64,000 nucleotides of DNA from a virus: the IMG/VR virus record IMGVR_UViG_3300032223_002658, positions 1-64,000 of that record; one strand, given 5' to 3'. The notes under the pieces were generated by a model, which was not told where the DNA came from, searched no databases, and worked only from the letters and a program-made list of their open reading frames with translations. Both the position numbers and the translations under genes were made by a program. Within the stretch, counting starts at the first letter, position 1, and each line of letters begins with the position of its first letter. Shown piece by piece: positions 27,522-42,371 of this stretch.

Positions 27522-29057
27522 TCAATTTATTTCTATTAAAGATTCTACGCACCATCCACTTCCTGTCCCTTTAATTGTCAACTCATATTTACCATCCTTT
27601 CTTATCTTATTTTTATATTTAGCATAAGCGCTTGGAAACATAACCATTCTTATGCTTCCAGTCGCGTCAGCAATATTCAATTGACACATTTCTTGACCAG
27701 GGTTTTCGCCCTTTTTTGTGACAGTGAATTCAACATCAACCACGGATGCTATTACTCTTTTTGCAACACCTCTATTGTTTCTTAGCATCCTATAGCAGTC
27801 CTTACAAGTAAACTCAGTTATATCTTTGTAAGAATCAACGGCGCTGCAAGTCATAGATATTCCAAGAAGCTCCTGCTCATTTAATGCTTTCCAGTCAGAT
27901 GTATCTGTTGATTTTACATCGATGGCCTCGGCTTCAGATTTCACAATCTGCTTTCTTGGCTTTGTACTTACCATAACAGCACAGTCTAACATTGCTTTTT
28001 TAATTATATCAACAGAATTTCCGTCAGAAATATTTTCAATTATGTATTTTGTCTCTCTTACTGTGAGTTGATTCATTGCCGAAACAACATCAAGCATGCA
28101 TTTTCTTGAAAGCCCATAACAATCACATGCACCGCTCTTGATCAAAGACTCCACACCAAGAGATCGAATAGAATCGTTTTCTCTAAAAGAAAGTTTGATG
28201 AACTGAGAGAATGTTGAAGGACGCTCATTATTTATAATAGACCAATCCTTTTCGCCAAATTGTTTGATATGGCAAAGGCCATATATGATTGAGCTTTTAC
28301 CATCTTTATTTAAAATCTTGAAGTCTTTTGATGACTCAATGATTGAGGGTGGTATGATTGATATGCCGTTCATCTTTGCCTCATTAATCATATCATGAAG
28401 CTCTTCTCTTGGCTTTTGTCTAGCTTTAGAATATGTCAAATATGTGCAGTAAAATTCGTAAGGAAAGTTCGCTTTTAGATACGCTGTGCGATATGACCAA
28501 ACAGCATATTTTTTTGCATGAGCATCGTTGAAAGCATATCTTCCTGCGCTCTCAATCATGGAGAACAGCTTTTCAGCCAAATCTTTGTCTTTTCCATTTT
28601 TAATACATCCATTGACAAATTTTTCTCTCAGATCATTAATGACTTTATAGTCTTTTTTACCGATGCCTTTTCTTAGTTTGTCTACAATTACCAATCTATC
28701 AATATATGGAAAATCTCTCCAAGCTATTTCTCCACCAAATTTCATTAGCTGCTCTTGATAAATAAGAACACCCATAGTTGGATTCAAAATGCGATCAACA
28801 TCGTCATCGCCAAATTTATTCGGCGGTTCTTTTCCATTTTTTACTCTAGAATACATTTCAGTCATGCCTGATTCAAGACATGCTGGTCTAATTAAAGCAA
28901 GAACAGCACTAAGCTCATTTATGTTCTTTGGTTTAATCTTTGATGCCCACTGCTTTCCAAGCTCACTTTCAAGTTGAAAAACACCGCCAGTATTTCCAGA
29001 CTGTATGAGCTTCCACGTTTTTTCGTTTTTAAAATTAATTGCGTCTATGTCAAGCAT
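27522..29057 (-). CDS. dnaE (C-half): DNA polymerase III alpha subunit, C-terminal half (fingers to OB fold)
   Basis: A 511-aa protein that corresponds to DnaE from just after the palm: GGVFQLESELGKQW near residue 21, LALIRPACLESGM near 52, GVLIYQEQLMKF near 94, then the fingers motif YAFNDAHAKKYAVWSY near residue 172, a helix-hairpin region and an OB fold at the end (CQLNIADATGSIRM). The three catalytic Asp are not here but in the gene at 39489-41375. The two genes together give 1139 aa, close to a full DnaE. Its ATG overlaps the exonuclease stop by 8 nt. No intein sequence is present at its start. Confidence 0.95.
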   Translation of the reverse strand: MLDIDAINFKNEKTWKLIQSGNTGGVFQLESELGKQWASKIKPKNINELSAVLALIRPACLESGMTEMYSRVKNGKEPPNKFGDDDVDRILNPTMGVLIYQEQLMKFGGEIAWRDFPYIDRLVIVDKLRKGIGKKDYKVINDLREKFVNGCIKNGKDKDLAEKLFSMIESAGRYAFNDAHAKKYAVWSYRTAYLKANFPYEFYCTYLTYSKARQKPREELHDMINEAKMNGISIIPPSIIESSKDFKILNKDGKSSIIYGLCHIKQFGEKDWSIINNERPSTFSQFIKLSFRENDSIRSLGVESLIKSGACDCYGLSRKCMLDVVSAMNQLTVRETKYIIENISDGNSVDIIKKAMLDCAVMVSTKPRKQIVKSEAEAIDVKSTDTSDWKALNEQELLGISMTCSAVDSYKDITEFTCKDCYRMLRNNRGVAKRVIASVVDVEFTVTKKGENPGQEMCQLNIADATGSIRMVMFPSAYAKYKNKIRKDGKYELTIKGTGSGWCVESLIEIN

Positions 29058-29691
29058 TGTTGGTTATCTTGATTTTAGGTCTGATCTTAAAGTTCATAAA
29101 TGACATGTATCGCTTAAACATTTCTGCTGTTATTAGAACATCTTCAAGAGCGTCATGTGTATCTGAAGTGCGCTTCATTCCTAAAAGTTCTGCATAAGTA
29201 TCAAGTCTATTATTTTTCAGATTGTCTCTTCCAAATATTGAAAACATCAGAGGCATCATGTCAAGTTTTATATTTGACCACGGGCAATCGTTTCTGCCAT
29301 TAATGATCTTGTATTTTCTCATCCAATATTCAACAAACTTATCATCAAATCCAGTATTGTTAAAGCCAACAACTATTGGATAGTTCCATGGGTTTTCCGA
29401 TGGGTTCGATATAGCAAGATACTCTTTAAATTTTCTTAGCGCTGTTTTTGGATGCACACCATTTTCTTTTGCATTAGTCCACAGGCTTTCTCCGATTACC
29501 TCTATTGCTTTTGCGTCTGCTTTTTCAGGACTTTGTGGTTGTACGATCACTGTAAATGGCTCAATGGTATTTGAAACCTCATAATCAGAATAGTTCAATG
29601 TTACTGCTGCTATTTGGACTATTTCGGCGCCATTTTCATAATCAAGGCCGCTTGTTTCAATATCATAAACAACGAAATTTCTTTTATTCAC
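29050..29691 (-). CDS. dnaQ-like: DEDDh 3'-5' exonuclease, Pol III epsilon-like
   Basis: A 213-aa proofreading-type exonuclease. ExoI is YDIETSG at residues 9-15, ExoII is GFNNTGFDD near 108-116 and ExoIII is HDALEDV near 178, giving the D-E-D-D-H set. It overlaps the polymerase C-half gene by 8 nt, which strongly suggests that it proofreads for the split polymerase. The GTG start is supported by a TACAAT box exactly 5 nt upstream. It is the first gene of the 10 kb leftward operon. Confidence 0.95.
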   Translation of the reverse strand: MNKRNFVVYDIETSGLDYENGAEIVQIAAVTLNYSDYEVSNTIEPFTVIVQPQSPEKADAKAIEVIGESLWTNAKENGVHPKTALRKFKEYLAISNPSENPWNYPIVVGFNNTGFDDKFVEYWMRKYKIINGRNDCPWSNIKLDMMPLMFSIFGRDNLKNNRLDTYAELLGMKRTSDTHDALEDVLITAEMFKRYMSFMNFKIRPKIKITNNA

Positions 29692-29696
29692 ATTCG

Positions 29697-29705
29697 ATTG
29701 TAGGT
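29697..29705 (-). promoter_or_regulatory. ACCTACAAT promoter of the polymerase/sugar operon
   Basis: On the minus strand ACCTACAAT is followed by CGAAT and the GTG start at 29691, 5 nt after the TACAAT hexamer. The same ACCTACAAT occurs before the genes at 53112 and 54134. It is back-to-back with the plus-strand promoter at 29709. Confidence 0.6.
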
Positions 29706-29708
29706 GTG

Positions 29709-29717
29709 GTGTATTAG
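29709..29717 (+). promoter_or_regulatory. GTGTATTAG promoter, leaderless spacing
   Basis: GTGTATTAG followed by TATTG and the ATG at 29723, 5 nt from hexamer to start codon. It is divergent to the ACCTACAAT box, with 9 nt between the two hexamers. Confidence 0.6.
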
Positions 29718-29722
29718 TATTG

Positions 29723-30349
29723 ATGGGTTCTAGCGATCAAGTCATAAAAAAACATTTAAACGCTGTAGCTAAACAGGTTGTTGGTCCTCCAACTAGAACT
29801 AGACCTGATGAACCAAATATGCCATTAGAAACAAGTCCAGGATCGTGGACAGATACAACACCATCATCGTGGCAATTTTCGATTCAAGATCTTTTGGCGG
29901 CTCTTTATAACGGAATAACATCTTTGAGACTGTATATTGAAAGATGGCTTGTTAGTCTCGGAATGTCAAGAAATGTTGCAAAAATAATAACTCTTAATTT
30001 AACACTAAGCGCAGAAACTATATTTCAGTTTGCTTACTGGGTTATAAGACCACAAACAACAAATCTGCCAAGAGAGTTATTTCTTAGTTTGCTGGGGTCA
30101 ATTTTGGATGCAATAAGTCCAACCGGACGTACTGGGATTGATGATGCCGCATGGGATACGTTTTATTATTTTGATCATAGAGGGGTATTTTTCTTTGGCG
30201 ATATTGTGGCAGCTATACAAAGAGGATGGACAATAAATCAAATAATAGAGTGGCTACAATTTTTGATCTCAAAGGGAAACGACTATTACTATAATTGGCC
30301 AGATACTCCAGAGCAAGCTCAAGAAGAAATGGATTTATACAAAGATTAA
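29723..30349 (+). CDS. Hypothetical accessory protein with a hydrophobic central helix
   Basis: A 208-aa protein with an N-terminal amphipathic segment (MGSSDQVIKKHLNAVAKQVV), a Pro/Thr-rich linker, and helices with hydrophobic stretches (residues about 85-105 and 120-135). It ends with an acidic tail. The start follows the promoter by 5 nt. It leads a plus-strand cassette of tagged Cys-rich proteins. I do not recognise its family. Confidence 0.5.
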   Translation: MGSSDQVIKKHLNAVAKQVVGPPTRTRPDEPNMPLETSPGSWTDTTPSSWQFSIQDLLAALYNGITSLRLYIERWLVSLGMSRNVAKIITLNLTLSAETIFQFAYWVIRPQTTNLPRELFLSLLGSILDAISPTGRTGIDDAAWDTFYYFDHRGVFFFGDIVAAIQRGWTINQIIEWLQFLISKGNDYYYNWPDTPEQAQEEMDLYKD

Positions 30350-30357
30350 GGTAAAAA

Positions 30358-30741
30358 ATGTCAATAGAAAAATCAATAGCAAAGTTTATATCAAAATTAC
30401 AAAATACACCAACTTCTTTGGAAAACACTGGTTCTCAATCTCGTCAGTGTAATAATCCAACAGCTTCTATTAATGAACTAGACAAGATAACGTATCCAAA
30501 CACACCAAGAGGAGCTTGCTGCTCTCTTGGTTTATGTTTTGAAGATACTAGCGCTAAGAGCTGCAGCTGGAGGATTTCGGTACACGGAGCTAGTCAGGGT
30601 TATTGGTTTGAGGGACAGCGTTGCGTTGGAGAATCTATACTTTGTCATAATGCTCTTGAAAATGGTGGAACAATACTGCAGCCAATGACAGAAAAAGAAG
30701 AAAGCGCTTATTTAAGAAATATAGGATGCATAAAATCTTAA
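30358..30741 (+). CDS. Tagged Cys-rich protein with a GACC motif
   Basis: A 127-aa protein with two parts: the MSIEKSIAKFISKL tag at residues 1-14, an Asn/Ser/Thr linker, and a Cys-rich domain beginning RGACCSLGLCFED near residue 51. The spacing GACC...C....C....G.WF.G..C is like the GACC module at 60318. AGGT lies 5 nt before the ATG. The Cys pattern suggests a disulfide-bonded or metal-binding exterior domain. Probably a virion or secreted accessory protein. Confidence 0.6.
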   Translation: MSIEKSIAKFISKLQNTPTSLENTGSQSRQCNNPTASINELDKITYPNTPRGACCSLGLCFEDTSAKSCSWRISVHGASQGYWFEGQRCVGESILCHNALENGGTILQPMTEKEESAYLRNIGCIKS

Positions 30742-30752
30742 CAGGTAAAATA

Positions 30753-31427
30753 ATGTCTATAGAACAATCAATAAACAAATTGGTAAAAGCAGTAAATCAA
30801 ACAGTTTTAGACAAAAAAATAACTCCAGAACAATATTTTGATGTAATTGCTTCGCCTTCATGCAAAAAACTTCTTGGTAAAGATGGTGCTCCAATTAAAA
30901 ATCCGCCTATAAATGATATTTGTGATGCGCTAAATGACAATAATACATGGATTAATCCTAAAAAATGTCCAGCATTTAATCCAATTGGACATAAGTGCTC
31001 TCCATCAGAAGTATTTATGTCAGAAGAAAAAATTCCATCAAATGGAAAATTAATAACATCAAAAGATGTTGCCAGGGCATGTGAAAATTATGCAAATGCA
31101 CAAGTGGCCGCAATAGACACAAGAGGCATGAGCCAATCTCAGATACAAGAAATAAAATCTAAAGCAAAATGCTCGTGCTACGACTATTCATTATATAGTC
31201 AGGAAAATGGCAGCGCTTGGCCAAAGGGAATAAAAGAGGCTTTAACAAATCCTGCGCCAAATAGTTTTATACCAGCTATATATCCAGGGCATTTATCTAT
31301 TCAAACATTAGATGCGTATAAAAATAATTGTAGCGCTTCACAAATTCATGATCTATGTATTGAAAATTCAATAGTGGTTAGAGATTGGAATCGCGCTTGT
31401 GGATTAATTGCAGCGCCAGAAAATTAA
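30753..31427 (+). CDS. Tagged Cys-rich hypothetical protein
   Basis: A 224-aa protein starting MSIEQSINKLVKAV, the third copy of the N-terminal tag. I choose the ATG at 30753 (preceded by CAGGT) over one at 30726, which would overlap the previous gene and hide the tag. The rest has about ten Cys spread along its length and a CSCYDY motif. Its stop codon overlaps the stop of the convergent metalloprotease gene. Function unknown. Confidence 0.6.
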   Translation: MSIEQSINKLVKAVNQTVLDKKITPEQYFDVIASPSCKKLLGKDGAPIKNPPINDICDALNDNNTWINPKKCPAFNPIGHKCSPSEVFMSEEKIPSNGKLITSKDVARACENYANAQVAAIDTRGMSQSQIQEIKSKAKCSCYDYSLYSQENGSAWPKGIKEALTNPAPNSFIPAIYPGHLSIQTLDAYKNNCSASQIHDLCIENSIVVRDWNRACGLIAAPEN

Positions 31428-32059
31428 CTTGATTTAATTATAGTACGCTCAATATCAGCTGGAACTTTTTTAAACTCTCCCCTTAAGGAGGGTTTAATTT
31501 TTCTAAGTATGTTTTTATTTTTTTCCAAAGATTCACCATACCATTTGCCGGTTTTGCACAACAGCAAATAATTGTATAATATTGCGGCGGCTTCTTTTTT
31601 GTATTGCCCAATATTTATTGGTAGGTTAAATTCTTTTATTGTCTTTATTGTGCGTCTTTCACAATTAAGCTCGCACATTATTGTTTTTCTGGTATAGATT
31701 TTTCTTAGTCTTTTATTGTAGGTTGCTTTTCCTGACTCCAGCATGGAAAGGTGGTAGTACGAATCACCACCGTTTCGCATGCTGGTGTCTTTGTATGTTT
31801 TGTCACCCTCTATCCACTGCATCATGTGAGAGTATTCATGAGCAAGCACAGAAACCCATTCTTCCTGAGTCTTTTCACCAGAAGCAACAACTAAAAGTTT
31901 TTTCTTTGGATGGTCATAAAAATATCCAGCACACAGAGAAGTTTCTCCTGGGCCTCGGACATTTTTTGATTTACTTATTTTTAATTTTACGCCGTGATTT
32001 CTAGCAACAGTTTTAACGTGTTTGATGAAGCGAGCGATGTTTTGATCTGCCTCTCTCAC
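31424..32059 (-). CDS. Zinc metalloprotease-like protein (HEYSH)
   Basis: A 211-aa protein with LAHEYSHMMQW at residues 72-82, an HExxH zinc site in a helix, following a strand-rich N-terminus. A third ligand is probably the Glu in MLESGKATYNKR about 30 residues later. No signal peptide is seen, so it would act in the cell or the virion. The GTG start is supported by a TATTAT box 5 nt upstream; an ATG two bases earlier on the same strand is followed at once by TGA. It stands alone between convergent and divergent plus-strand genes. Confidence 0.75.
   Translation of the reverse strand: MREADQNIARFIKHVKTVARNHGVKLKISKSKNVRGPGETSLCAGYFYDHPKKKLLVVASGEKTQEEWVSVLAHEYSHMMQWIEGDKTYKDTSMRNGGDSYYHLSMLESGKATYNKRLRKIYTRKTIMCELNCERRTIKTIKEFNLPINIGQYKKEAAAILYNYLLLCKTGKWYGESLEKNKNILRKIKPSLRGEFKKVPADIERTIIKSS
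31472..31504 (+). terminator. Plus-strand terminator embedded in the metalloprotease gene
   Basis: AAACTCTCC (31472-31480) pairs with GGAGGGTTT (31487-31495) with one G-T pair and a 6-nt loop, followed by AATTTTTCT. It lies 45 nt after the stop of the plus-strand cassette, inside the 3' coding end of the opposing gene. Confidence 0.75.
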
Positions 32060-32064
32060 ATCCT

Positions 32065-32073
32065 ATAATACAC
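32065..32073 (-). promoter_or_regulatory. GTGTATTAT promoter, leaderless spacing
   Basis: On the minus strand GTGTATTAT is followed by AGGAT and the GTG start at 32059, again 5 nt. It is divergent to the tail fibre promoter at 32132. Confidence 0.6.
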
Positions 32074-32131
32074 TTGTGTGTAAATGCACCAAGTTTAAAA
32101 CTCCACATACTTAAAGTTTCTTTTCTAGAAG

Positions 32132-32140
32132 GTGTATTAA
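32132..32140 (+). promoter_or_regulatory. GTGTATTAA promoter of the tail fibre gene
   Basis: GTGTATTAA, 7 nt before the ATG at 32148, with no Shine-Dalgarno between. The 58 nt between this and the minus-strand box at 32065-32073 hold no open frame. Confidence 0.55.
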
Positions 32141-32147
32141 AACTAGT

Positions 32148-33728
32148 ATGACAAAGATCAAGATAAAAAACTCCACGACAGCATCTGGAGTGCCAATAAG
32201 CGGAAGTTTGTTACGGGGTGAGCTAGCAGTAAATATCACAGATAAACTGCTTTTTGTTGGTGACGCATCAGGAAATCCAGTACAAATCACAAACCAGGGT
32301 GGTGCCGGGGCTGGTGTTTCTTCTTTAACTAGTAACCCTAGCGGAGTTTACGTTTCACAATCAAGTGGCGCAGTGACTTTAGGTCTTCAGACAAATGTTT
32401 TTGTGAGTGGTTCTTTAAGTGCAAGCGGAGTTCTTGATGGTGATCAATCTGCCATAAATGTGTACGCTGCACAAGGAACTGGTGGTTATTCTCAATGGAT
32501 GAAATTTAAAGATTACGGTGGGTATTATTCAAAAATAATGGGTTCTTATGATGGTGCAATGTATTTTCAAAACTCAGCCAACACTTGGAATTTTATTCCT
32601 AGCGGTGCTGCTGCTCAATCTGTTTCTTTAGATACTTCTGCGCTTACTGGATATATATTTAATAGCGCAAGTGTTGTGCAAATTGGAAATCAAAACACAA
32701 CCATCATACTCAATTCCACAGGCGTAATTGCTACTGGAGATTTGCGCGCGAATCACTTTATAGGCGACTTGGTTGGTGCTGTTGTTAAAGAGTGTAAGTA
32801 TACCGGAACTGGGACAGTACGAAGAGGAAATCCCATGTATATTACTGGTACTGTTGGTTCCAGCTATGTAATAGAAGTGCAGACTGCTCAGGCGAATGAT
32901 ATTAACAAACTAGCCGCTGTTGGTGTGATAGAACAACCGCTTGCGGCAAATGCTACTGGTCATATAATTCTTAATGGATCATTAAAAGATTTTGATACAT
33001 CATCATTTAACGTGGGGGATCTATTGTATGTTGGCGCAACTGGATGGATTACAAACATAAGACCAACTGGAGCGACACAGTTCGTTCAACCAGTTGGTCG
33101 TGTAGCAAGATCTCACCCAAATTTTGGTGAAATAATAGTAACAGTTCTTTCTGATGAGCAGCAGAATCCAAATACCCTTGCTGCATCTGGAACACTTATA
33201 CTTGGAACTCCAGATATTGTTACTCCACTTGCTGGCACAGGAACTGTGTTTAACACCAATGCCATTGCTATAAATATGGGTGGAGCGGCGTCACAACTTT
33301 CATTTGGCGCGGCATCATCAACATCGACTTTTAAAGGCTCAATAAATGCTACGGGTTCAATTTTCAACAATGGCCCAATCAATACCACAGGATATGTTTC
33401 TGCAGCAAGCGGATATCGTTTCACATCAAGCGCAGTAAACACTCAAACTGGTACTACTTATACTCTGCTATCAACAGATGATGGCAGAGTAATAACGATG
33501 AGCAATGCAAGCACAATAACCGTAACAGTACCAACAGGATTGAATGTTGGTTTTAATACTACAGTTATTCAACTTGGTGCTGGACAAGTAGTATTTGCAA
33601 CAGGAGCAGGAAGCCCAACTCTTAACAGTTACGGATCTGCCTTGAAAATAACTGGTCAATACGGAGCCGCTTCAATTATTTCATACGCATCAAACTCATA
33701 TAATCTAGCTGGAACACTATCAACATGA
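32148..33728 (+). CDS. Tail fibre protein with tropism-determinant-like N-terminus
   Basis: A 526-aa protein. Residues 1-50 (KIKIKNSTTASGVP, LLRGELAVN, KLLFVGDASGNP) resemble the N-terminal attachment module of phage tropism determinants. The middle has repeated Gly/Ser/Thr beta segments and a GDLLYVGATGW motif. The C-terminal 90 residues (YTLLSTDDGRVITM ... ITVTVPTGLNVG) form a beta module common at the ends of phage fibres. It is coupled to the next gene by ATGA. It probably contacts the host or carries a receptor-binding partner. Confidence 0.75.
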   Translation: MTKIKIKNSTTASGVPISGSLLRGELAVNITDKLLFVGDASGNPVQITNQGGAGAGVSSLTSNPSGVYVSQSSGAVTLGLQTNVFVSGSLSASGVLDGDQSAINVYAAQGTGGYSQWMKFKDYGGYYSKIMGSYDGAMYFQNSANTWNFIPSGAAAQSVSLDTSALTGYIFNSASVVQIGNQNTTIILNSTGVIATGDLRANHFIGDLVGAVVKECKYTGTGTVRRGNPMYITGTVGSSYVIEVQTAQANDINKLAAVGVIEQPLAANATGHIILNGSLKDFDTSSFNVGDLLYVGATGWITNIRPTGATQFVQPVGRVARSHPNFGEIIVTVLSDEQQNPNTLAASGTLILGTPDIVTPLAGTGTVFNTNAIAINMGGAASQLSFGAASSTSTFKGSINATGSIFNNGPINTTGYVSAASGYRFTSSAVNTQTGTTYTLLSTDDGRVITMSNASTITVTVPTGLNVGFNTTVIQLGAGQVVFATGAGSPTLNSYGSALKITGQYGAASIISYASNSYNLAGTLST

Positions 33729-34678
33729 TATCAATTCCATCTATAAAACCATTTGCTGTTCCATCGTCAATGTCAGAAAGTGCGACATTCGGAACTAAAA
33801 AATCAACAGGAACTTTTGGTGGGTTAAGTAGCGCTTATATGACATCATCAACAGGTTATTTTAAAGTTGAATGGTGGGATGGAACAAGCACGCAATATGG
33901 ATCTGGAGATCCAAATACAACATATAATATTACTAAATCTGTAGTTGCTCCTTACAATACTTCATCAGAAAAACTTTTCACGATGTATCCAACTGACTCT
34001 TCTGGCAAAAGAAAAGGGTATTTTATAGCTATCTATTTTTCATCCTTAGGTAATTGTCCCGTTTCATCTTCTGATGTTACAAAATGCAGACGTTTAAATA
34101 CTCTCACACTTGTTGGACCACTCACATCATATACTCACAATCCAAACTTACAATACTTAACAATATCAAATAGCTCTTTAACATCTTTGTCATTTTCAAA
34201 GGATACAGTTTTAGACGGCCTTATATTTGTAAGTAATAGTTCTGCGACAAACGTAAATTTAGCGAATTGTCCAGTGCTTACAAGCGTAGATCTTTCAAGT
34301 AATTCATCACTAACATCAATTTCTAATATAACATCTTGCACATATCTTTATTCTTTCATATGCTCTGGAAGCACAGGAATAACATCACTTTCATTCTCTG
34401 GTTTAATGTATTTAGTATGGATAAATGTAAGTAGCTGTGCTCTTACTTCTATCAGAGCAGCAGGATGTAATCTTTATTTGTTATCAAATAATACATATTC
34501 ATCGTGGTTTGGTGGGGCTTGGTTGAGTGCAAATTCTTTAAATGCTGCAGCACTTAATCAATTTTACACAGATATTGGCCCAGCAAATGGAATAATACGT
34601 GTTGATGGAAATCCTGGAACCACATCAGATACTCCAACAATAGCAACAGGAAAAGGTTATACTGTCCTAGGAACTTGA
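33725..34678 (+). CDS. Leucine-rich-repeat-like tail fibre partner
   Basis: A 317-aa protein with about five repeats of 22-23 residues between residues 130 and 260, each with a core like L..L.(I/V).(N/S)SSLTSLSF. This is a leucine-rich-repeat solenoid of the Ser/Thr-rich bacterial type. It is ATGA-coupled to the fibre gene, so it may be the receptor-binding tip or an accessory subunit. The first 120 residues are Ser/Thr-rich without a recognised domain. Confidence 0.65.
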   Translation: MISIPSIKPFAVPSSMSESATFGTKKSTGTFGGLSSAYMTSSTGYFKVEWWDGTSTQYGSGDPNTTYNITKSVVAPYNTSSEKLFTMYPTDSSGKRKGYFIAIYFSSLGNCPVSSSDVTKCRRLNTLTLVGPLTSYTHNPNLQYLTISNSSLTSLSFSKDTVLDGLIFVSNSSATNVNLANCPVLTSVDLSSNSSLTSISNITSCTYLYSFICSGSTGITSLSFSGLMYLVWINVSSCALTSIRAAGCNLYLLSNNTYSSWFGGAWLSANSLNAAALNQFYTDIGPANGIIRVDGNPGTTSDTPTIATGKGYTVLGT

Positions 34679-34679
34679 A

Positions 34680-35330
34680 ATGCCATTATACTTCAAAACA
34701 CCAAACTATAGCATAGCGTTTATACCAAAAGTAGGATGCTCGTCATTATCATTTGCTGTCATTAAATCTTTTCAATCATATGAATCAGATTTAATAGACA
34801 ATGCTCATCTTCCAGATGGATCAACAGCAGAACAAATGATGTGGCAATGCTTAGTTGAACGAGAAAAATGGCCGTCAAAACAAATATTGGCTTTTGTCAG
34901 AGATCCAATAGAGCGATTCAAATCCGCAATGGCGCAAGTCAATCTTTCCGATGTAGATGGAACAATTAATTCAATACTAAATGATGAAAAAATAGAATGT
35001 GGAAAAAATGTTAAAAGGTTAATTTCTCTTAAGAATAATGGACATTTTAAACCGCAAATAATGTGGGTTGATGAAACAACAAAGTTGTATCGATTTCCAG
35101 ATCATATCAGCGAACTTTTTCAAGAGGCTGGAATGACGCAACAAATGCCATTAATAAATCAGAGTTCATTTCCAAAACCACAGTTAACATTTGAACAAAT
35201 AATTAAGCTTCAGGACATTTATGCAGAAGATATAACTCTTTATAACTCAATAACATCTCCAGGAATAATAACTGGAATGGTATCAGCAAATAGGCCTCAA
35301 AAACCAGAGGTCGTAATTGAAGAAGTGTGA
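34680..35330 (+). CDS. Sulfotransferase-family protein
   Basis: A 216-aa protein with the PAPS-binding motifs of sulfotransferases: IPKVGCSSLS at residues 15-24 (the 5'-phosphosulfate loop, usually PKxGxTS/T) and FVRDPIERFKSAM near residue 75 (the 3'-phosphate motif). It would move sulfate from PAPS to a sugar or protein acceptor. The length matches the short Sulfotransfer_2-type enzymes. It starts 1 nt after the LRR gene, so it may act on the fibre proteins or on surface glycans. The substrate is unknown. Confidence 0.8.
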   Translation: MPLYFKTPNYSIAFIPKVGCSSLSFAVIKSFQSYESDLIDNAHLPDGSTAEQMMWQCLVEREKWPSKQILAFVRDPIERFKSAMAQVNLSDVDGTINSILNDEKIECGKNVKRLISLKNNGHFKPQIMWVDETTKLYRFPDHISELFQEAGMTQQMPLINQSSFPKPQLTFEQIIKLQDIYAEDITLYNSITSPGIITGMVSANRPQKPEVVIEEV

Positions 35331-35351
35331 TTTTCGCCTGGATAAAACAAT

Positions 35352-35360
35352 GTGTATTAA
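35352..35360 (+). promoter_or_regulatory. GTGTATTAA promoter
   Basis: GTGTATTAA, 6 nt before the ATG at 35367, with no Shine-Dalgarno between. It starts the next three-gene block. Confidence 0.55.
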
Positions 35361-35366
35361 TTACAT

Positions 35367-35732
35367 ATGGCAGGATTATTCGATATCTTCAAAAACAAAC
35401 TAAACCTTGCGGTTGCTCAAGGTACGATGGAAGATACACAAAAAAACATCGATAATCAGGAGCCTACAACTCCAGAGGAAGATTTATCAGACGGTATGAG
35501 TGAAGGTGTGAATGATGAAACCAGTTATAGTGGAATAGAACCAGGCGATATGGTTCAAAACACAAATACTGAATGTATGCATCATGGTAGCGAGGGGGTA
35601 GTTTTGAAAGTAGAATCACTACCAAATAACACAGGATACGTCATCCATTATCAAGTAACAAACAGTGGCCCAACTTATTCTCCGGGCGACATTTTAACAA
35701 AAACTGAAGATCAATTAGGTAAAATATCATGA
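35367..35732 (+). CDS. SH3-like virion-associated protein 1
   Basis: A 121-aa protein. The first 50 residues are acidic and probably disordered. Residues about 55-115 (GDMVQNTNTECMHHGSEGVVLKV ... YSPGDILTKTEDQL) form a small barrel of the SH3/KOW type seen in large phage capsid and prohead modules. It is ATGA-coupled to a second, shorter SH3-like gene. A structural or scaffold role is inferred. Confidence 0.55.
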   Translation: MAGLFDIFKNKLNLAVAQGTMEDTQKNIDNQEPTTPEEDLSDGMSEGVNDETSYSGIEPGDMVQNTNTECMHHGSEGVVLKVESLPNNTGYVIHYQVTNSGPTYSPGDILTKTEDQLGKIS

Positions 35733-35983
35733 CACCAGATAATTCATCGTACTCAAGTGGTTCATCAAACTCTTACAGCTCATCAGGCTTTGCAATTGGT
35801 GATACAGTAATAAACACAATGGATGGTTCACCAAATATCGGTACATGGGGGAAAGTTGTATCAGTAACTGGTACTGGTTCTAACACTGTAATCGGCTATA
35901 TTGTTGGTAACTCAGAGTACCCATATCAAACAGGTTGGACTGTTTACGATCTTGCTACAAATCTTGAGCTTCATGATGCTTGA
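35729..35983 (+). CDS. SH3-like virion-associated protein 2
   Basis: An 84-aa protein with a Ser/Tyr-rich disordered start followed by a barrel-like segment (GFAIGDTVINTMDGS ... WGKVVSVTG). It resembles the C-terminal domain of the preceding protein in plan and is translated in step with it. Function unknown. Confidence 0.5.
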   Translation: MTPDNSSYSSGSSNSYSSSGFAIGDTVINTMDGSPNIGTWGKVVSVTGTGSNTVIGYIVGNSEYPYQTGWTVYDLATNLELHDA

Positions 35984-36356
35984 AGATATAGATAAGATTT
36001 TTGCTGATGAACAAGCTATCGCCGTGACACATAACGGAAAGAGTGTTACTTTAAATAAACCACACAGAATTGGAAAAGGCGAGCCTGGATACGGAAAAAA
36101 GAAATTTGCTGTTTATGTAAAGAATGATAGTGGAAACGTTGTGCGTGTAACGTTTGGTGATCCAAACATGGAAATAAAGCGAGACAATCCGCAAAGACGA
36201 AAAAACTACAGATCTCGTCATGGATGCGATAAGCCGGGGCCAAAGTGGAAAGCCAACTATTGGTCTTGCAAAATGTGGGAAGCAAAGAAGTCTGTTACAG
36301 ACTACACAAGCAGCCAGTTATTTGATGTTTTTTTAAAAGCTTTGAATAAAGACTAA
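35973..36356 (+). CDS. Capsid-associated DUF6321-like protein
   Basis: A 127-aa basic protein. The segment KKKFAVYVKNDSGNVVRVTFG, DPNMEIKRDNPQRRKNYRSRHGCD and KWKANYWSCKMW is the conserved domain often fused to prohead core or protease proteins in T4-like phages. It is usually linked with capsid assembly or the virion interior. The start is ATG 35973 or 35976; both follow GAG. Its stop overlaps the stop of the convergent membrane gene. Confidence 0.7.
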   Translation: MMLEDIDKIFADEQAIAVTHNGKSVTLNKPHRIGKGEPGYGKKKFAVYVKNDSGNVVRVTFGDPNMEIKRDNPQRRKNYRSRHGCDKPGPKWKANYWSCKMWEAKKSVTDYTSSQLFDVFLKALNKD

Positions 36357-37150
36357 GCATTATTTTGGTTGTTGTCTGCTGGCTGGTTTTCTTTTAGCCA
36401 TACGCCAAGAGCAATAATCATTGCAGCTATTACACCAGCTGGAACACCAATTGATGCTCCAATTCCAGTTAAATCAAGCGCCCCAGAACCTATGGCAAGA
36501 GCAGCGCCAATTGTTATTATTGATGCAGCGCCAAGACCAACAAGCCATCTCACAAGATTCTCATTTGCGCCATTTGCCATAGCCCATACTCTAATTGCAG
36601 CATTTTGAGAGCCAGCTTTGAGATAAAGTGCAGCTATTGCTATTAGCCCATCTTTTGTTGTATTTTTCAACATTTGTTCAAGCTCATCAATAGTTAGACC
36701 TAAATTATCAGAAAGAGTTTTAAGAACTTTCTTTGTGTCTGGCAAATCAAGAAATTTTGCTCTGCAATCTTCATCAAGTTTACCGATTAAATCTTTGAAA
36801 ATTTCAAGTAAAGCAATTCCTTGATCTTCTGATTTAACGGATTTAATTTTTTGTATATTCTTTGCTAAAATTTCAAGGGCTTTTTTAGCACATAAATCAG
36901 ATGGATCGCTTTTTGCTTTATTGATAAGATATTTAACAAGAACTATTGTTGCTGTTATAATAAGACTTGGTACTAAAGAAAGTAGAATTTGCGGTATCCA
37001 AGAGTAATCGATTGGTACTTGCTCTTCTACATCTGTATTTTGTTGCCAATCGGTTTGTGACACATCTTTTTGTGATATATCCTGCAGTTTTGTTGGCTCA
37101 AGCTTTGCTTGTACAATGTGAATTAAAAGATGTTTTTCAAAATTATTCAT
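36353..37150 (-). CDS. Membrane-active protein 3 of a three-gene operon
   Basis: A 265-aa protein, start at ATG 37150 (the next in-frame ATG upstream would overlap the previous gene). Residues 1-20 (MNNFEKHLLIHIVQAK) resemble the start of the next gene. One hydrophobic helix lies near residues 50-75 and a Gly/Ala/Ile-rich hydrophobic region at residues about 205-250. The centre is helical with acidic residues. No enzyme motif. Such C-terminal glycine-alanine hairpins suggest membrane insertion. Confidence 0.5.
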   Translation of the reverse strand: MNNFEKHLLIHIVQAKLEPTKLQDISQKDVSQTDWQQNTDVEEQVPIDYSWIPQILLSLVPSLIITATIVLVKYLINKAKSDPSDLCAKKALEILAKNIQKIKSVKSEDQGIALLEIFKDLIGKLDEDCRAKFLDLPDTKKVLKTLSDNLGLTIDELEQMLKNTTKDGLIAIAALYLKAGSQNAAIRVWAMANGANENLVRWLVGLGAASIITIGAALAIGSGALDLTGIGASIGVPAGVIAAMIIALGVWLKENQPADNNQNNA

Positions 37151-37154
37151 TTTA

Positions 37155-38015
37155 TTAACCAACAGGAATGTATCCATTCTTGGCTAGCCATTGTAAAAGT
37201 TCACCAAGAGATTTAGCGGTTCTTACGGCACCCACTATAGCAGCAACAATTCCACCGATTCCAGTACCAAAACCAACAATTAAAGCCCCAATTGCAAAAA
37301 TTGCTTGTGCAGTATTTAGCAAAGCGTTTAGATCTTCAAAAAATTCTTTTTCTCTGGCTTCTAGTAAAATTGTTGCTGTTATATATATTCCGGCGTACTC
37401 TGCATTGGTAGAATCAAGAGCATTTAATCTTTTGTAAACAGCAACAAGAAGACCAAGACCGTCTGGATCATAAGCAATGTTATCACCTAGCGCTTGACCA
37501 ACCGCTTCAATAAAAGCTTTATCTTGCGCTTGTAATCTATCACCAAGTGCCCTTATTAGCTTTCTTCTAAATTCTGGATCTGATCCATATTCTTTAAGAC
37601 ATGGAAAAAGATCAATTACACTCCCTATTTCTCTTGGTTGAAATAGTGATTCCATAGCAGCAATGGCCGCGGAAATAGATCTTGTCTTCCCTGAATTTTT
37701 TGCTTCTATAAGTGCTTCAGTTGCCTTAACTAATTGTCTTACGAAATCACGACCGCTTTTAGACTCTATTACTTTTCTTATACATTCAATTTCTTTAGCT
37801 GCGCCAGCGCCAAATGCTCTTACAAAAGCAGCAAAAAAACCTAATATTGCCTGCTGATCCTGTGGTTCATTTGCATCATAGTTTAGTTTTGGTTGAACTT
37901 TAGTGTCTTCTTGAACTGGAACTGGAACACCTTCTAAATCTGTCATATGCATTGGTTGTAAAGAAGTTTTTGCTTTAAGTATATGCCGCAATATTATGAT
38001 GTTTTTGTTATTCAT
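37155..38015 (-). CDS. Membrane-active protein 2 of a three-gene operon
   Basis: A 286-aa helical protein starting MNNKNIIILRHILKAK, similar to the start of the protein at 36353. A hydrophobic Gly/Ala/Ile stretch at residues about 235-268 probably spans or inserts into a membrane. It overlaps the preceding gene by ATGA. It may be a distant paralog of its neighbour, based on the same order of elements and the shared N-terminus. Confidence 0.5.
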   Translation of the reverse strand: MNNKNIIILRHILKAKTSLQPMHMTDLEGVPVPVQEDTKVQPKLNYDANEPQDQQAILGFFAAFVRAFGAGAAKEIECIRKVIESKSGRDFVRQLVKATEALIEAKNSGKTRSISAAIAAMESLFQPREIGSVIDLFPCLKEYGSDPEFRRKLIRALGDRLQAQDKAFIEAVGQALGDNIAYDPDGLGLLVAVYKRLNALDSTNAEYAGIYITATILLEAREKEFFEDLNALLNTAQAIFAIGALIVGFGTGIGGIVAAIVGAVRTAKSLGELLQWLAKNGYIPVG

Positions 38016-38968
38016 TGTGGAACCAATTGAACGTTTGGGAAAAGTTTTTGAAGAGCTTGTATGACAGCGGCCAATGTTCCTGCTGCTGCTTCACCAGCTA
38101 AGCCTATAGCTGTTATTGCTGAAGTCAATGCGGATATTGCCGCACTTATTGCTGTGGCTGCGCCTGCAGCTACACCGCCAACGACAGCTATGGCAGCAAT
38201 CGCTATTGCAATTGCTCCACTTAAAGCAACCATTTGTGTGTCTGACATTCCTGAAAGAGCATCAACAGACTGATCTTTTATATATTCAACAATTATTTTT
38301 GCTGCAGCAGATGGATCTGTATATAATACATTTTTTGCCATTTCAATCAGAATGTCACTGAATGATAAAGACTGACTTGATTCCATGAGTGCGTCTATTG
38401 AATTTAAAATTCCTTCACTAACAAAGGTGTTAGGAAGATTAAAGGCATTTCCAAATTGAGCGACAAATAAACCGGCCATCAATGCCATAGCCGCTTTTTT
38501 AATACAGGCCATATGTGACTCAGGAATTTGAAAAGGATATTTTTGAACTACTTTCTTTTTCAATTCAAGATTATAAGTAATATCTTTTATGCTATTTATT
38601 CCTGTGGAAGTATCGGTTGGCGTTACTGGTTTAAACCAAGAAATTATTTCTTTAAAAAAATCTTTTACTTTTTCAAGAATGGTTATATCTAGAGTATTTA
38701 GGCATGGAATTTTTGTTTTTAACCATTTAAGAATAACGGTTAATGTAGTGCCTCCCACAACAGTTATACCAATATCAAGTATAATTTGAGAGAACCATTC
38801 AGCGGGATCTTTAATTTTATCTAGAGTTCTTTCAACAATCCCAGGCTTATTTTCAGATATTGATGGATTTGTTTGTAAATAATTCAATTCAGCATCTTTT
38901 AATGCTATAGCATTCATTGTTTTTATGAATACTCTATCCTGATATCTTACTTCATGCATATACCGCAT
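38012..38968 (-). CDS. Membrane-active protein 1 of a three-gene operon
   Basis: A 318-aa protein with a hydrophobic helix near residues 65-85, another near 165-185, and a very Ala/Gly/Ile-rich C-terminal region at residues about 240-305. There are no catalytic motifs. The ATG at 38968 lies 5 nt after a TATTAT box. Together with the next two genes it forms a membrane-directed operon placed between the two halves of the polymerase. Confidence 0.55.
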   Translation of the reverse strand: MRYMHEVRYQDRVFIKTMNAIALKDAELNYLQTNPSISENKPGIVERTLDKIKDPAEWFSQIILDIGITVVGGTTLTVILKWLKTKIPCLNTLDITILEKVKDFFKEIISWFKPVTPTDTSTGINSIKDITYNLELKKKVVQKYPFQIPESHMACIKKAAMALMAGLFVAQFGNAFNLPNTFVSEGILNSIDALMESSQSLSFSDILIEMAKNVLYTDPSAAAKIIVEYIKDQSVDALSGMSDTQMVALSGAIAIAIAAIAVVGGVAAGAATAISAAISALTSAITAIGLAGEAAAGTLAAVIQALQKLFPNVQLVPQ

Positions 38969-38973
38969 AATTT

Positions 38974-38982
38974 ATAATACAC
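38974..38982 (-). promoter_or_regulatory. GTGTATTAT promoter, leaderless spacing
   Basis: On the minus strand GTGTATTAT, AAATT, ATG at 38968: 5 nt between hexamer and start codon. It overlaps the stop codon of the gene at 38982. Confidence 0.65.
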
Positions 38983-39206
38983 TAATCTTGTAGCACAAAT
39001 AACTTCTTTTTATAGTGCGCATGCTTTGCATACTTGAGTATATCTATTAAAGCATCAATATCACTTATGGTAAATATTGATACGGTGTTTTTATCTTGAA
39101 CTATTTCTATAGCGTGTTCTTTTTCAATGATTGAAATAGTTTTTAGTTGATGAACAGCCATTTCTTTGCCATGATGCTGATTTTTTTGTTCACTCGTCTT
39201 TTTCAT
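38982..39206 (-). CDS. Small hypothetical protein
   Basis: A 74-aa protein, His/Lys-rich at the start (MKKTSEQKNQHHGKEM) with a compact alpha/beta second half (ISIIEKEHAIEIVQDKN). It overlaps the upstream gene by about 17 nt. The start could also be the TTG two codons upstream. No recognised family. Confidence 0.5.
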   Translation of the reverse strand: MKKTSEQKNQHHGKEMAVHQLKTISIIEKEHAIEIVQDKNTVSIFTISDIDALIDILKYAKHAHYKKKLFVLQD

Positions 39207-39381
39207 CGTCAAGGTAGTTTATCTCTATGCCCTCTACCTTTGTATATGTTTTTGCGTAATCAATAGATCTATTCCACAAATCTCTATCTATTTCCTTGAC
39301 GTACTCAGCAAATTTTAAACCAAATATAATCATGGCTTTTGCTAAGCGAGGGTCCATGTCTCTGATATCAATATCTTCCAT
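39190..39381 (-). CDS. Small acidic hypothetical protein
   Basis: A 63-aa protein starting MEDIDIRDMDPRLAKAM, helical and acidic at both ends. The ATG at 39381 follows AAGGAGT at a good distance; an ATG at 39405 lies within the upstream terminator hairpin. It is the first gene after the small structured RNA region. Confidence 0.6.
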   Translation of the reverse strand: MEDIDIRDMDPRLAKAMIIFGLKFAEYVKEIDRDLWNRSIDYAKTYTKVEGIEINYLDDEKDE

Positions 39382-39390
39382 AACACTCCT

Positions 39391-39426
39391 TAAAAAGCCC
39401 ACCATGACATTTAAGACATGATGGGC
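39391..39426 (-). terminator. Minus-strand intrinsic terminator
   Basis: On the minus strand GCCCATCATGTC pairs with GTCATGGTGGGC (one U-G, one U-U) around a 6-nt loop and is followed by TTTTT. It lies downstream of the polymerase N-half gene and 10 nt before the next start codon. Confidence 0.75.
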
Positions 39427-39472
39427 AACTACGCGTAACTCAGACGGGCCTAAGATGCCCGAATAGCGTAAT
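39427..39472 (-). ncRNA. Candidate small structured RNA or structured leader
   Basis: Between the promoter at 39479-39487 and the terminator at 39391-39426 lie 45 nt with a nested fold on the minus strand: outer TACGC (39466-39470) with GCGTA (39430-39434), inner CGGGC (39457-39461) with GCCCG (39445-39449) closing a 7-nt loop. Together with the terminator this would be an RNA of about 80 nt. No open frame fits. It could be a free small RNA or an attenuated leader of the gene at 39381. Confidence 0.4.
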
Positions 39473-39478
39473 CACCAA

Positions 39479-39487
39479 TATATACAC
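39479..39487 (-). promoter_or_regulatory. GTGTATATA promoter before the structured RNA
   Basis: On the minus strand GTGTATATA begins 2 nt after the polymerase stop codon. No start codon follows at 5-7 nt; instead the structured segment and a terminator follow. Confidence 0.5.
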
Positions 39488-39488
39488 T

Positions 39489-41375
39489 TTAATCATAGTA
39501 AGAGAAAGAAAACTCCCCAAACTCAATTTCTTTCAGTCCTTTGTTGACCATTTGTGAGATTTGAAATACTTTTTCCAGGGCGCTAACCCCAAGAATATCA
39601 AACTTAACACCGCCTAAATACTCAATATCCGCCCCTTCAACATCAATAATCATGCTGTCTAGTTTTTCTGAATAAGTCATTGGAAATAAATTGCTTAAAG
39701 GTTGATCTGCAATAATAATGCCTGCAGCGTGAACGCTTTCATTTTTAGCTATTGATTCCATTTTGATGGCAAAATCAAAAGCTTCTTTAAACTGTTCGTA
39801 GTATTCAGCCACAGATTTAATGTGGTCAATATTCCACCTTATGATGCCATAAGAAGGATCATCTTTTTGCATTTCGCTCAAATCGTCAGCAATTTTTGCT
39901 TCTTCTGCAAATTTCTTTGTGATCTGATTTGATGCATCAAAATAATTATCAGTAGGCTTCAACAATTTAAATACTTCTTTGATTGCACCCTTGCCTTTGA
40001 ATCTTGAATGTGTAATGATGTGGCCAACACAGTCAGTGCCATATTTGTTCTTTATATATTCTATAAGCTCTTCTCTAAATGTTGGCGGAACATCTGTGTC
40101 AATATCTGGAAGCGAAACGTTGTCTTTTGTGTTTCTTCCTTCATTATAAAATCTTTCAAACGGCAATTCTCTTTGTGGATCATATCCAAGCGTTGGATCT
40201 GGTCTCATTGGGTCAACAGAAGAAATTCCGAGTAGATATGAAATCATGCAACCAGAAGAAGATCCTCTGATATCTGCTGGAATACCAGATGCACGAACGT
40301 GATTAATTATATCATATACGATCAAAAAATATCCAGACATGTTTGCCTGTTTAAATACGCCAAGCTCATGCTGAATTCTTTTAATATAAGCGTCTTTAAG
40401 AGAAGCATCGGTCTTTAGATCGTTTATAAGACCCGTTGTTTTGAATCCCTTTCGGCACAACTCTTTCAAATGCTCATGTGCATCATCGATTTTGTGATCT
40501 GAAATCTTAAAGACAGGAAGTATTGGCCTTTCTTGAATCGAATAATCCTCAATCAAATCCAATATTTTAAGAGTTTTTTCACCATCTGGAATACTCTTCA
40601 TCAAATGACAATTCGCATATTTAACATCAAATATTCTTGAGTCATCAAGCCCCTTGCAGCAATCAGCAGAAGACTCTTCTTTTGACTGAGTGATGAGTTG
40701 ATGCAAATAATAATCATCTTTATTCAAATAGTGAACATTTACAGATGGGATAGATTCTTGAAATTCTTTCTTTATCATTTTGCCAAGAGCCACACAGCAT
40801 GGTAGAAAAGACAGATCATAATACAAAAACGTATGCTCATATATTTTTGAATAGTTTGAAATTACCTTTTTAACACAATCCTTCCAATCTTCACGAATTA
40901 AAGATTCGCAGTCTTCGACCGAATTTGATTCGTAAGCCATTTCTGGATTTATGTAAGCAGAAAAGTATACTTGACTTCTTAGATCGCCAACAAGACAGAT
41001 GAGACCACCTTTGTGCGAATATAAATCATCCATTTGTGTTCTTGGCATTCCATTAAACGAAAGAGCTTCTTTTGTGCGCGCCAATGAAACTAATTTGACG
41101 ATATTTTTATATCCTGTTTTATTTTTTGCAAGTAGAGTTATTCTTCCAGAAAATACGTCTCCGTTGTATACATCAAGTTCAACACCAATTATTGGTTTTA
41201 TTCCAGCGTCTTTACATTCCTTGAAAAATGGCACTACACCTTTTATGTTGTTATGATCAGTCATGCATATAGCTGGAATGCCATATTCTTTAGCTTTTGG
41301 AACTATGGTTTCAATTGTTGCAGTACTGTCAAGAAGTGACCAAGATGTATGAACGTGAATAGGAATATAACTCAT
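39489..41375 (-). CDS. dnaE (N-half): DNA polymerase III alpha subunit, N-terminal half (PHP, palm)
   Basis: A 628-aa protein. The PHP domain starts it (IPIHVHTSWSLLD at residues 4-16, MTDHN near 39, GVELDV near 62). The palm carries SLPDIDTDVPP near residue 418, with two catalytic Asp, and GGVKFDILGVSALEKV near residue 594, with the third. The protein ends about 20 residues later, just where DnaE continues into the fingers; that part is the gene at 27522-29057. There are no intein-like residues at the end. The gene overlaps its upstream neighbour by 4 nt. Confidence 0.96.
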   Translation of the reverse strand: MSYIPIHVHTSWSLLDSTATIETIVPKAKEYGIPAICMTDHNNIKGVVPFFKECKDAGIKPIIGVELDVYNGDVFSGRITLLAKNKTGYKNIVKLVSLARTKEALSFNGMPRTQMDDLYSHKGGLICLVGDLRSQVYFSAYINPEMAYESNSVEDCESLIREDWKDCVKKVISNYSKIYEHTFLYYDLSFLPCCVALGKMIKKEFQESIPSVNVHYLNKDDYYLHQLITQSKEESSADCCKGLDDSRIFDVKYANCHLMKSIPDGEKTLKILDLIEDYSIQERPILPVFKISDHKIDDAHEHLKELCRKGFKTTGLINDLKTDASLKDAYIKRIQHELGVFKQANMSGYFLIVYDIINHVRASGIPADIRGSSSGCMISYLLGISSVDPMRPDPTLGYDPQRELPFERFYNEGRNTKDNVSLPDIDTDVPPTFREELIEYIKNKYGTDCVGHIITHSRFKGKGAIKEVFKLLKPTDNYFDASNQITKKFAEEAKIADDLSEMQKDDPSYGIIRWNIDHIKSVAEYYEQFKEAFDFAIKMESIAKNESVHAAGIIIADQPLSNLFPMTYSEKLDSMIIDVEGADIEYLGGVKFDILGVSALEKVFQISQMVNKGLKEIEFGEFSFSYYD

Positions 41376-42370
41376 TTTGTGTCCTTAAATACATTTCTTC
41401 TGTTTGAGGTAGACGCTATTTTTTCTTCCAGCTTCTCAGATTTTATCTTGTCTATTGTCAGTATTGTTTTATCTATTCCGTGAGCCAGATTATAGTTATA
41501 GACATTTTCACAAATGCTGCAACCATTTTGAGTTTTTGTTTTTCCAAAATGACAGGTAGATTTACATTTCCATGACTGAGATGGCTCTACTTCTTTTATT
41601 CTTGAAGGAAGATTATTTCCCTTGATGGTATTGAAGTATTTTTTGATTATTTCAAGTGTCTCAGCTCTTTGGGCATCGTCAAAACAAACGGTGAATGGGC
41701 CACCATCATTAACAAAATGAATTGTCAAAAGTCTATTTTTATACTGTGGGAACAGCATATATGTCGCTAAATCATACATGCGTAGCTGTATATCATTAGA
41801 CGCAAAATAATCATAATCTTTTAATTCACCAGTCTCCCATGATTTTCTTGACCCCGTTTTCCAATCTATTATCTCCAGCGTTTCATCTGATACTTTTGTG
41901 ATTAAATCTATCGTTCCGCGAATTTCATAATTTCCAGATGTTGTTTTTTTTGAAAGTACGTCGTAATATTCAAATGTAAAACCAGGCATCGTCAATGGGA
42001 TCCTAAATTGCTTTTCAGTGTGCAAAACATTTAGTTTTGTTGGATTGTAACTTGAATTAATGATTTTTTCTATTGATAAAATACAGAACTTTTTATCTGC
42101 TTTTTCATTTAGATCTATTTTGCCAGCGTTTTCTTTTTTGTATCGATCCCAACAAATTTCAAAAAGCTTTTTGTGATCAGTGAATAGGTCATCTTTGTGG
42201 CCAAGTTTATTTGCTTTTGCCATTATTTCAAGAACATGGTGAACAATAGTTCCAAGAAGAGCTTTTTTTCCAGATCCACTTGGTATTTGCAATATTGATT
42301 CAAGAAAAAATTGAAATTGACAACCCTCGTATGTCTTTATTGATGACGCTCGCAAGTACTGTATGTTCAT
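41372..42370 (-). CDS. RecB/Cas4-like PD-(D/E)XK nuclease with iron-sulfur Cys
   Basis: A 332-aa nuclease. It has TYEGCQFQFFLE near residue 14 with the first Cys, the catalytic core RGTIDLITK...LEIIDWKTGSRKSW near residues 159-180 (D and DxK), and a QLRMYDLATYML helix, then three or four Cys at the end (CKSTC, CSIC). A Cys near the start and a Cys cluster at the end is the 4Fe-4S pattern of Cas4/AddB-type nucleases. ATG 42370 follows AGGAC. It sits between the polymerase and dNMP kinase, so a role in recombination or host DNA breakdown is likely. Confidence 0.88.
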   Translation of the reverse strand: MNIQYLRASSIKTYEGCQFQFFLESILQIPSGSGKKALLGTIVHHVLEIMAKANKLGHKDDLFTDHKKLFEICWDRYKKENAGKIDLNEKADKKFCILSIEKIINSSYNPTKLNVLHTEKQFRIPLTMPGFTFEYYDVLSKKTTSGNYEIRGTIDLITKVSDETLEIIDWKTGSRKSWETGELKDYDYFASNDIQLRMYDLATYMLFPQYKNRLLTIHFVNDGGPFTVCFDDAQRAETLEIIKKYFNTIKGNNLPSRIKEVEPSQSWKCKSTCHFGKTKTQNGCSICENVYNYNLAHGIDKTILTIDKIKSEKLEEKIASTSNRRNVFKDTK

Positions 42371-42371
42371 T

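What the first reader, a model, noticed from the sequence alone, without database searches (positions are those of the whole stretch)
27522..41375. DNA polymerase III alpha split into two genes 10 kb apart without an intein
The N-half (39489-41375) holds PHP and palm with all three catalytic Asp; the C-half (27522-29057) holds fingers and OB fold. They join at a point just after GGVKFDILGVSAL. Together they have 1139 aa, a normal DnaE length. The known cyanobacterial dnaE split is at a different site (next to YxFNxxH) and uses an intein; neither is seen here. The C-half is coupled to a DnaQ-like exonuclease. The halves must assemble without splicing.
Basis: partly seen in the sequence, partly recalled or inferred. 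Interest (0 to 1): 0.7.

Follow-up and report, generated by a model that had tools for sequence, protein, structure and literature searches.

The report
Two-chain phage DNA polymerase III
This virus, like hundreds of environmental relatives, encodes its main DNA-copying enzyme as two separate proteins that most likely fit together without being spliced, an ancient and stable variation on an enzyme that bacteria make as one chain.

Summary
The gene at 39489-41375(-) encodes PHP+palm/thumb with Asp424/426/593; the gene at 27522-29057(-) encodes fingers+HhH+OB. They meet between E. coli DnaE residues 575 and 584, the palm/fingers linker, with no homologous segment missing. It is not a local accident: about 140 fetched viral loci (some contigs fetched twice; a capped scan counted 584 relatives) belong to a clade with the same break, mostly in the tight order N-half, ~55-aa protein, DnaQ-like exonuclease, C-half. 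Only the window's own lineage has a ~10 kb cassette pushing the N-half away. The split clade is monophyletic (SH-aLRT 100). Fifteen viral records up to 230 kb each carry exactly one palm and one fingers match and no family A or B polymerase, so the pair is probably the sole replicase. No intein or known intron lies at the junction, whereas some relatives carry recognisable split inteins at other sites of the same genes. Active-site residues are divided between the chains and conserved in both. Best reading: a non-covalent two-chain Pol III alpha with its own DnaQ-like subunit. Split Pol III alpha has precedents (jumbo phages, phage phiT1), so this is a new variant of a known kind. Assembly is inferred, not shown.

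The parts
39489..41375 (-). N-half of Pol III alpha, 628 aa: PHP domain, palm and thumb; catalytic D424, D426, D593
   Evidence: AlphaFold2 pLDDT 86.6, best PDB matches all Pol III alpha
27522..29057 (-). C-half of Pol III alpha, 511 aa: fingers, helix-hairpin-helix, OB fold; conserved R129, K130, F176, N177, H180
   Evidence: AlphaFold2 pLDDT 90.3, best PDB matches Pol III alpha
29050..29691 (-). DnaQ-like 3'-5' exonuclease, 213 aa, DEDDh residues D10, E12, D116, H179, D184; overlaps the C-half start by 8 nt
   Evidence: RNase_T 2.5e-17; phrog_192 DNA polymerase exonuclease subunit 2.1e-27
27039..27473 (-). Single-strand binding protein, directly downstream of the C-half
   Evidence: Pfam SSB 1.3e-28; same position in relatives
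41372..42403 (-). PD-(D/E)XK nuclease, overlaps the N-half start by 4 nt
   Evidence: Pfam PDDEXK_1 1e-19; same position in relatives
43468..44514 (-). DNA primase of the same replication block
   Evidence: phrog_47 6.5e-47; synteny
44477..45925 (-). DnaB-like replicative helicase of the same replication block
   Evidence: phrog_19 5e-56; synteny
29720..38968 (.). Lineage-specific cassette between the N-half and exonuclease + C-half; mostly plus-strand genes (virion-like protein 32148-33728, sulfotransferase-like 34680-35330) and three minus-strand genes without family matches (36353-38968)
   Evidence: homologous cassette on the opposite strand in the closest relatives, less conserved than the replication genes; families

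Best explanation
The two genes encode the two chains of one replicative Pol III alpha. The N-chain (PHP, palm, thumb) carries the catalytic aspartates; the C-chain (fingers, HhH, OB) carries conserved basic residues and the DNA-binding part. They associate through the former intramolecular palm/fingers interface to form one active site, with no protein or RNA splicing, and work with the co-encoded DnaQ-like proofreading subunit. The split arose at the palm/fingers linker in the ancestor of a large clade of environmental viruses, with the exonuclease gene (and usually a ~55-aa gene) between the halves. In the window's lineage a gene cassette later separated the N-half from exonuclease + C-half. 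Shown: the split, its conservation, one clade, purifying selection, no intein at the junction, no other polymerase found in the records. Inferred: assembly and activity.
For: Complete complementary coverage of DnaE, break at E. coli 575/584. Same break across the clade with order N-half, exonuclease, C-half; 38 split forms in one clade, SH-aLRT 100. dN/dS about 0.01-0.08 where it could be computed, for N, C and exonuclease (dS near saturation). Active-site residues conserved in both chains. Exactly one palm and one fingers match and no family A or B polymerase in 15 records of 81-230 kb. No room for an intein N-part on the N-half (median tail 11 aa, 95th percentile 24) and no intein C-part on the C-half, while split inteins at other sites of the same genes in relatives are plainly recognisable. 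Nothing meaningful from Rfam near the junction. Both chains fold confidently alone and match Pol III alpha.
Against: No direct evidence of binding or activity; no complex model could be made. The N/C distance correlation (r = 0.98) is also expected for any co-inherited genes. In the window the halves probably lie in separate transcription units, so matched expression is needed. Records may be incomplete, so another polymerase cannot be excluded.
Confidence: 0.85

Rival explanations
1. The halves are covalently joined: protein trans-splicing by an undetected split intein, or RNA trans-splicing by a split group I or II intron.
For: Split inteins do occur in some relatives at other sites of the same two genes, and the cyanobacterial dnaE split uses one. 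The C-half of many relatives has a 25-30 aa extension with a CGCxF motif at the junction.
Against: N-half tails are far too short for an intein N-part and the C-half extensions lack the intein C-terminal motif and junction residue; the window C-half has no extension at all. No known intron family near either end. The ~165-180 nt gap of relatives encodes a small protein.
Confidence: 0.03
2. The pair does not form the replicase: the halves have separate roles (for example the N-half as PHP nuclease) or are remnants, and the virus uses the host polymerase.
For: A split polymerase chain can persist for another function; assembly is not shown.
Against: Both halves keep polymerase active-site residues and are under purifying selection; they are in a conserved replication block with helicase, primase, exonuclease and SSB; no other polymerase found.
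Confidence: 0.08
3. Sequencing, assembly or pseudogene artefact in this one record.
For: The window itself is a single metagenomic record.
Against: Same break in over 100 loci from many samples, open frames, purifying selection.
Confidence: 0.01

Closest known systems
Split minimal DNA polymerase III alpha of group 2.2 jumbo phages (PMC7824862)
   Same: Pol III alpha divided into two standalone proteins, encoded by distant genes, proposed by its authors to reconstitute the enzyme without mention of an intein.
   Different: That form is minimal (no other Pol III domains) and accompanies a family B polymerase. Here PHP, HhH and OB parts are present, no family B polymerase is found, all three catalytic Asp are in the N-chain, and a DnaQ-like gene sits at the break. 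Relation between the two was not tested by sequence.
Rossellomorea phage phiT1 gp20/gp18 (PV767480)
   Same: Same break point: gp20 matches E. coli DnaE 1-574, gp18 matches 584-1052.
   Different: Halves nearly adjacent with a 49-aa ORF between and no exonuclease between; distant in the tree. A common origin of the split is neither shown nor rejected (p-AU 0.41).
Cyanobacterial split dnaE with split intein
   Same: DnaE encoded by two separate genes.
   Different: Cyanobacterial break is in the fingers next to YxFNxxH and is repaired by a split intein (established knowledge); here the break is at the palm/fingers linker and no intein is present.
Bacillus phage vB_BauM_KLEB27-3 gp166/gp164 (OM634661)
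   Same: Phage DnaE in two genes.
   Different: Break inside the fingers (E. coli 612/616) with an HNH endonuclease gene between.
Single-chain DnaE of bacteria and most phages
   Same: Domain order, catalytic residues, partner proofreading exonuclease.
   Different: One chain; E. coli DnaE also has a C-terminal region past ~1052 that has no counterpart here.

Membership tests
C-family DNA polymerase (DnaE / Pol III alpha) | PHP, palm/thumb, fingers, HhH and OB domains in order | tested here: met
   Pfam and PDB matches over both chains together
C-family DNA polymerase (DnaE / Pol III alpha) | Three catalytic aspartates in the palm | tested here: met
   D424, D426, D593, invariant in 44 aligned N-halves
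C-family DNA polymerase (DnaE / Pol III alpha) | Polymerase activity | not testable with these tools
   needs purified chains
Split-intein dnaE (cyanobacterial type) | Intein N-part and C-part at the break | tested here: not met
   N tails median 11 aa; no intein C-part on the C-half; positive controls at other sites
Split-intein dnaE (cyanobacterial type) | Break next to YxFNxxH | tested here: not met
   motif is intact inside the C-half at 174-180
Split minimal Pol III alpha of jumbo phages (PMC7824862) | Lacks PHP and other accessory domains | tested here: not met
   PHP 1.8e-36 in the N-half, HhH and OB in the C-half
Split minimal Pol III alpha of jumbo phages (PMC7824862) | Accompanied by a family B polymerase | tested here: not met
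   no PF00136 match in 15 records, which may be fragments
DnaQ-like proofreading subunit | DEDDh active site | tested here: met
   D10, E12, D116, H179, D184
DnaQ-like proofreading subunit | Binds the polymerase subunit | not testable with these tools
   no complex prediction available

The most novel reading that the evidence does not exclude
A large virus clade permanently runs a three-chain Pol III core whose polymerase active site is assembled from two polypeptides, and this two-chain state is primitive or regulatory (for example, synthesis starts only when the fingers chain arrives with the exonuclease) rather than a frozen accident of gene breakage.
Probability: 0.08. Interest if true: 0.85.

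Novelty: new variant of a known kind. Interest (0 to 1): 0.55.

Why it matters
It is a natural, long-stable experiment in which Pol III alpha is divided exactly between catalytic palm and fingers, so the palm/fingers interface, the order of assembly and the role of the DnaQ-like subunit could be studied with separable parts. It also shows that a split dnaE in environmental data does not imply an intein, and that annotating either half alone as a truncated polymerase would be wrong.

Tried and rejected
Intein at the junction: rejected by length and sequence, with positive controls in relatives. Intron or known RNA at the junction: none; the one sub-threshold Rfam match (SOX2OT exon, E 0.79) is chance. 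Frameshift or bypass: rejected, since complete genes lie between the halves. A second polymerase: none in 15 records. T4-type capsid as a lineage marker: PF07068 rang nowhere, controls included, so it says nothing; the virus lineage was not identified. Relatives of phiT1 in viral contigs: none. Nearest fused relative: L072 was sister to the split clade in one tree but moved in another, so unresolved. The small ISCC protein in the window lineage: the search returned no hits at all, so its absence is not shown. Literature searches for an earlier description of this exact form found none, in an open-licence library only.

Full report
Observation. The window is part of an 87,471-base virus record. 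On the minus strand, 39489-41375 encodes 628 aa with PHP and DNA_pol3_alpha domains, and 27522-29057 encodes 511 aa with the fingers domain and a helix-hairpin-helix. Against solved structures the N-half aligns to E. coli DnaE residues 6-575 and the C-half from residue 584 on, so the break sits in the linker between palm and fingers and no homologous segment is missing. D424, D426 and D593 are in the N-half; R129, K130, Y174, F176, N177 and H180 of the fingers are in the other chain. By the alignments, R129/K130 correspond to T. aquaticus R766/R767 and K591 to K616; that these contact the incoming nucleotide is my own knowledge and was not confirmed in the library. The 213-aa exonuclease gene upstream of the C-half overlaps it by 8 nt and keeps its DEDDh residues.

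It is an old, widespread arrangement. Scans of the viral collection brought relatives at 73-85%, 54-62% and about 29-36% identity. In the fetched loci the order is N-half, exonuclease, C-half on one strand. In 116 of 144 loci with both genes (some contigs counted twice) the N-half and exonuclease lie within 254 bases, and in most of them that gap encodes a conserved ~55-aa protein with an ISCC motif. The block helicase, primase, nuclease, N-half, exonuclease, C-half, SSB, glycosyltransferase is shared between L193 and the window.

The 10 kb gap is secondary. In the window's wider lineage the N-half is 0-6 kb from the exonuclease in the 54-62% relatives and about 8-10 kb in the closest ones. 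The intervening cassette is homologous between the window and its closest relatives, lies mostly on the opposite strand, and is less conserved than the replication genes. N-half and exonuclease + C-half are therefore probably separate transcription units in this lineage (inference).

No splicing at this junction. Over 115 unique N-halves and 90 C-halves, the N tail past E. coli position 566 has median 11 aa and 95th percentile 24 aa, and the C-half extension has a median of about 25 aa. Rfam finds nothing meaningful near the junctions. The clade itself provides positive controls. L051, L064 and L153 have the C-half broken at FNK/SHS by recognisable intein N- and C-parts with a ~300-aa ORF between. 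L066 and L068 have the N-half broken at GPGRG/SAAG in the same way, and L067 shows the matching C-side. L062, L064 and L067 carry an insertion with intein features at RPG/C. The fused viral relative L072 has such an insertion at FNR/SH. Nothing like this occurs at the palm/fingers junction. The intein calls rest on reading the sequences, not on a profile search.

The pair is probably the replicase. Fifteen records of 81-230 kb each have exactly one palm match and one fingers match and no family A or B polymerase match; records may be fragments. All three genes are under strong purifying selection, dN/dS about 0.01-0.08 where computable, with dS near saturation. N and C pairwise distances correlate at r = 0.98 over 39 pairs, as expected for partners but also for any co-inherited genes.

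Ancestry. In a maximum-likelihood tree of 68 polymerases, 38 split forms make one clade with SH-aLRT 100; bacterial DnaE and most phage DnaE are single chains. The tree is unrooted, so it does not by itself give the direction; a split from a single chain is the simpler reading. Rossellomorea phage phiT1 has the same break point in a distant polymerase; a common origin is neither shown nor rejected (p-AU 0.41). Bacillus phage KLEB27-3 is broken elsewhere, with an HNH endonuclease gene between.

Structure. Single-chain AlphaFold2 models are confident (pLDDT 86.6 and 90.3); in the N-half only residues 235-241 and the last nine fall below 50. Both match Pol III alpha structures best. No complex could be predicted here, so assembly remains an inference from completeness, conservation and the divided active site.

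Literature. The closest precedent found is a minimal Pol III alpha in group 2.2 jumbo phages, split into two proteins encoded by distant genes beside a family B polymerase (PMC7824862). The present form has PHP, HhH and OB parts, no detected family B polymerase, and a DnaQ-like gene at the break. A recent survey of bacterial polymerases showed no passage on split DnaE in a keyword search (PMC12926913). The library holds open-licence papers only, so earlier descriptions may be missed.

Verdict. Real, conserved, and not an intein case. It most likely works as a non-covalent two-chain Pol III alpha. New variant of a known kind.

Noticed in passing
L051:12330-15343, L064:12437-15873, L153:13970-16853: The C-half is further broken at FNK/SHS by intein-like N- and C-parts with a ~300-aa ORF between, close to but not identical with the cyanobacterial dnaE intein site.
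   Followed up: partly
L066:7656-10735, L067:1-2813, L068:7656-10735: The N-half is broken at GPGRG/SAAG with intein-like parts; L066 and L068 have a 269-aa ORF between.
   Followed up: partly
L062:5093-7249, L064:12437-13843, L067:3661-6021, L072:9977-13528: In-frame insertions with intein features: at RPG/C in L062, L064 and L067, and at FNR/SH in the single-chain L072.
   Followed up: partly
L194 and L195: Two contigs binned with a Lokiarchaeota genome carry the same N/exonuclease/C arrangement and are almost identical in the tree to viral contig L056; either a virus of that host or a binning error.
   Followed up: no
L024:2781-2956 and the same gap in most loci: A conserved ~55-aa protein with an ISCC motif lies between the N-half and the exonuclease; function unknown.
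   Followed up: partly
L024:3640-5256 and other C-halves of the ~34% group: C-halves of this group begin with a 25-30 aa extension containing a CGCxF motif and a further Cys; missing in the window's lineage.
   Followed up: no
L106:4899-9296: Bacillus phage KLEB27-3 DnaE is split inside the fingers with an HNH endonuclease gene between the parts.
   Followed up: partly
L073:9923-14811: Another viral DnaE in two genes (687 and 510 aa) with a break at a different point.
   Followed up: no
window 36353-38968 (-): Three consecutive genes downstream of the N-half with no Pfam or PHROG match and hydrophobic stretches.
   Followed up: no
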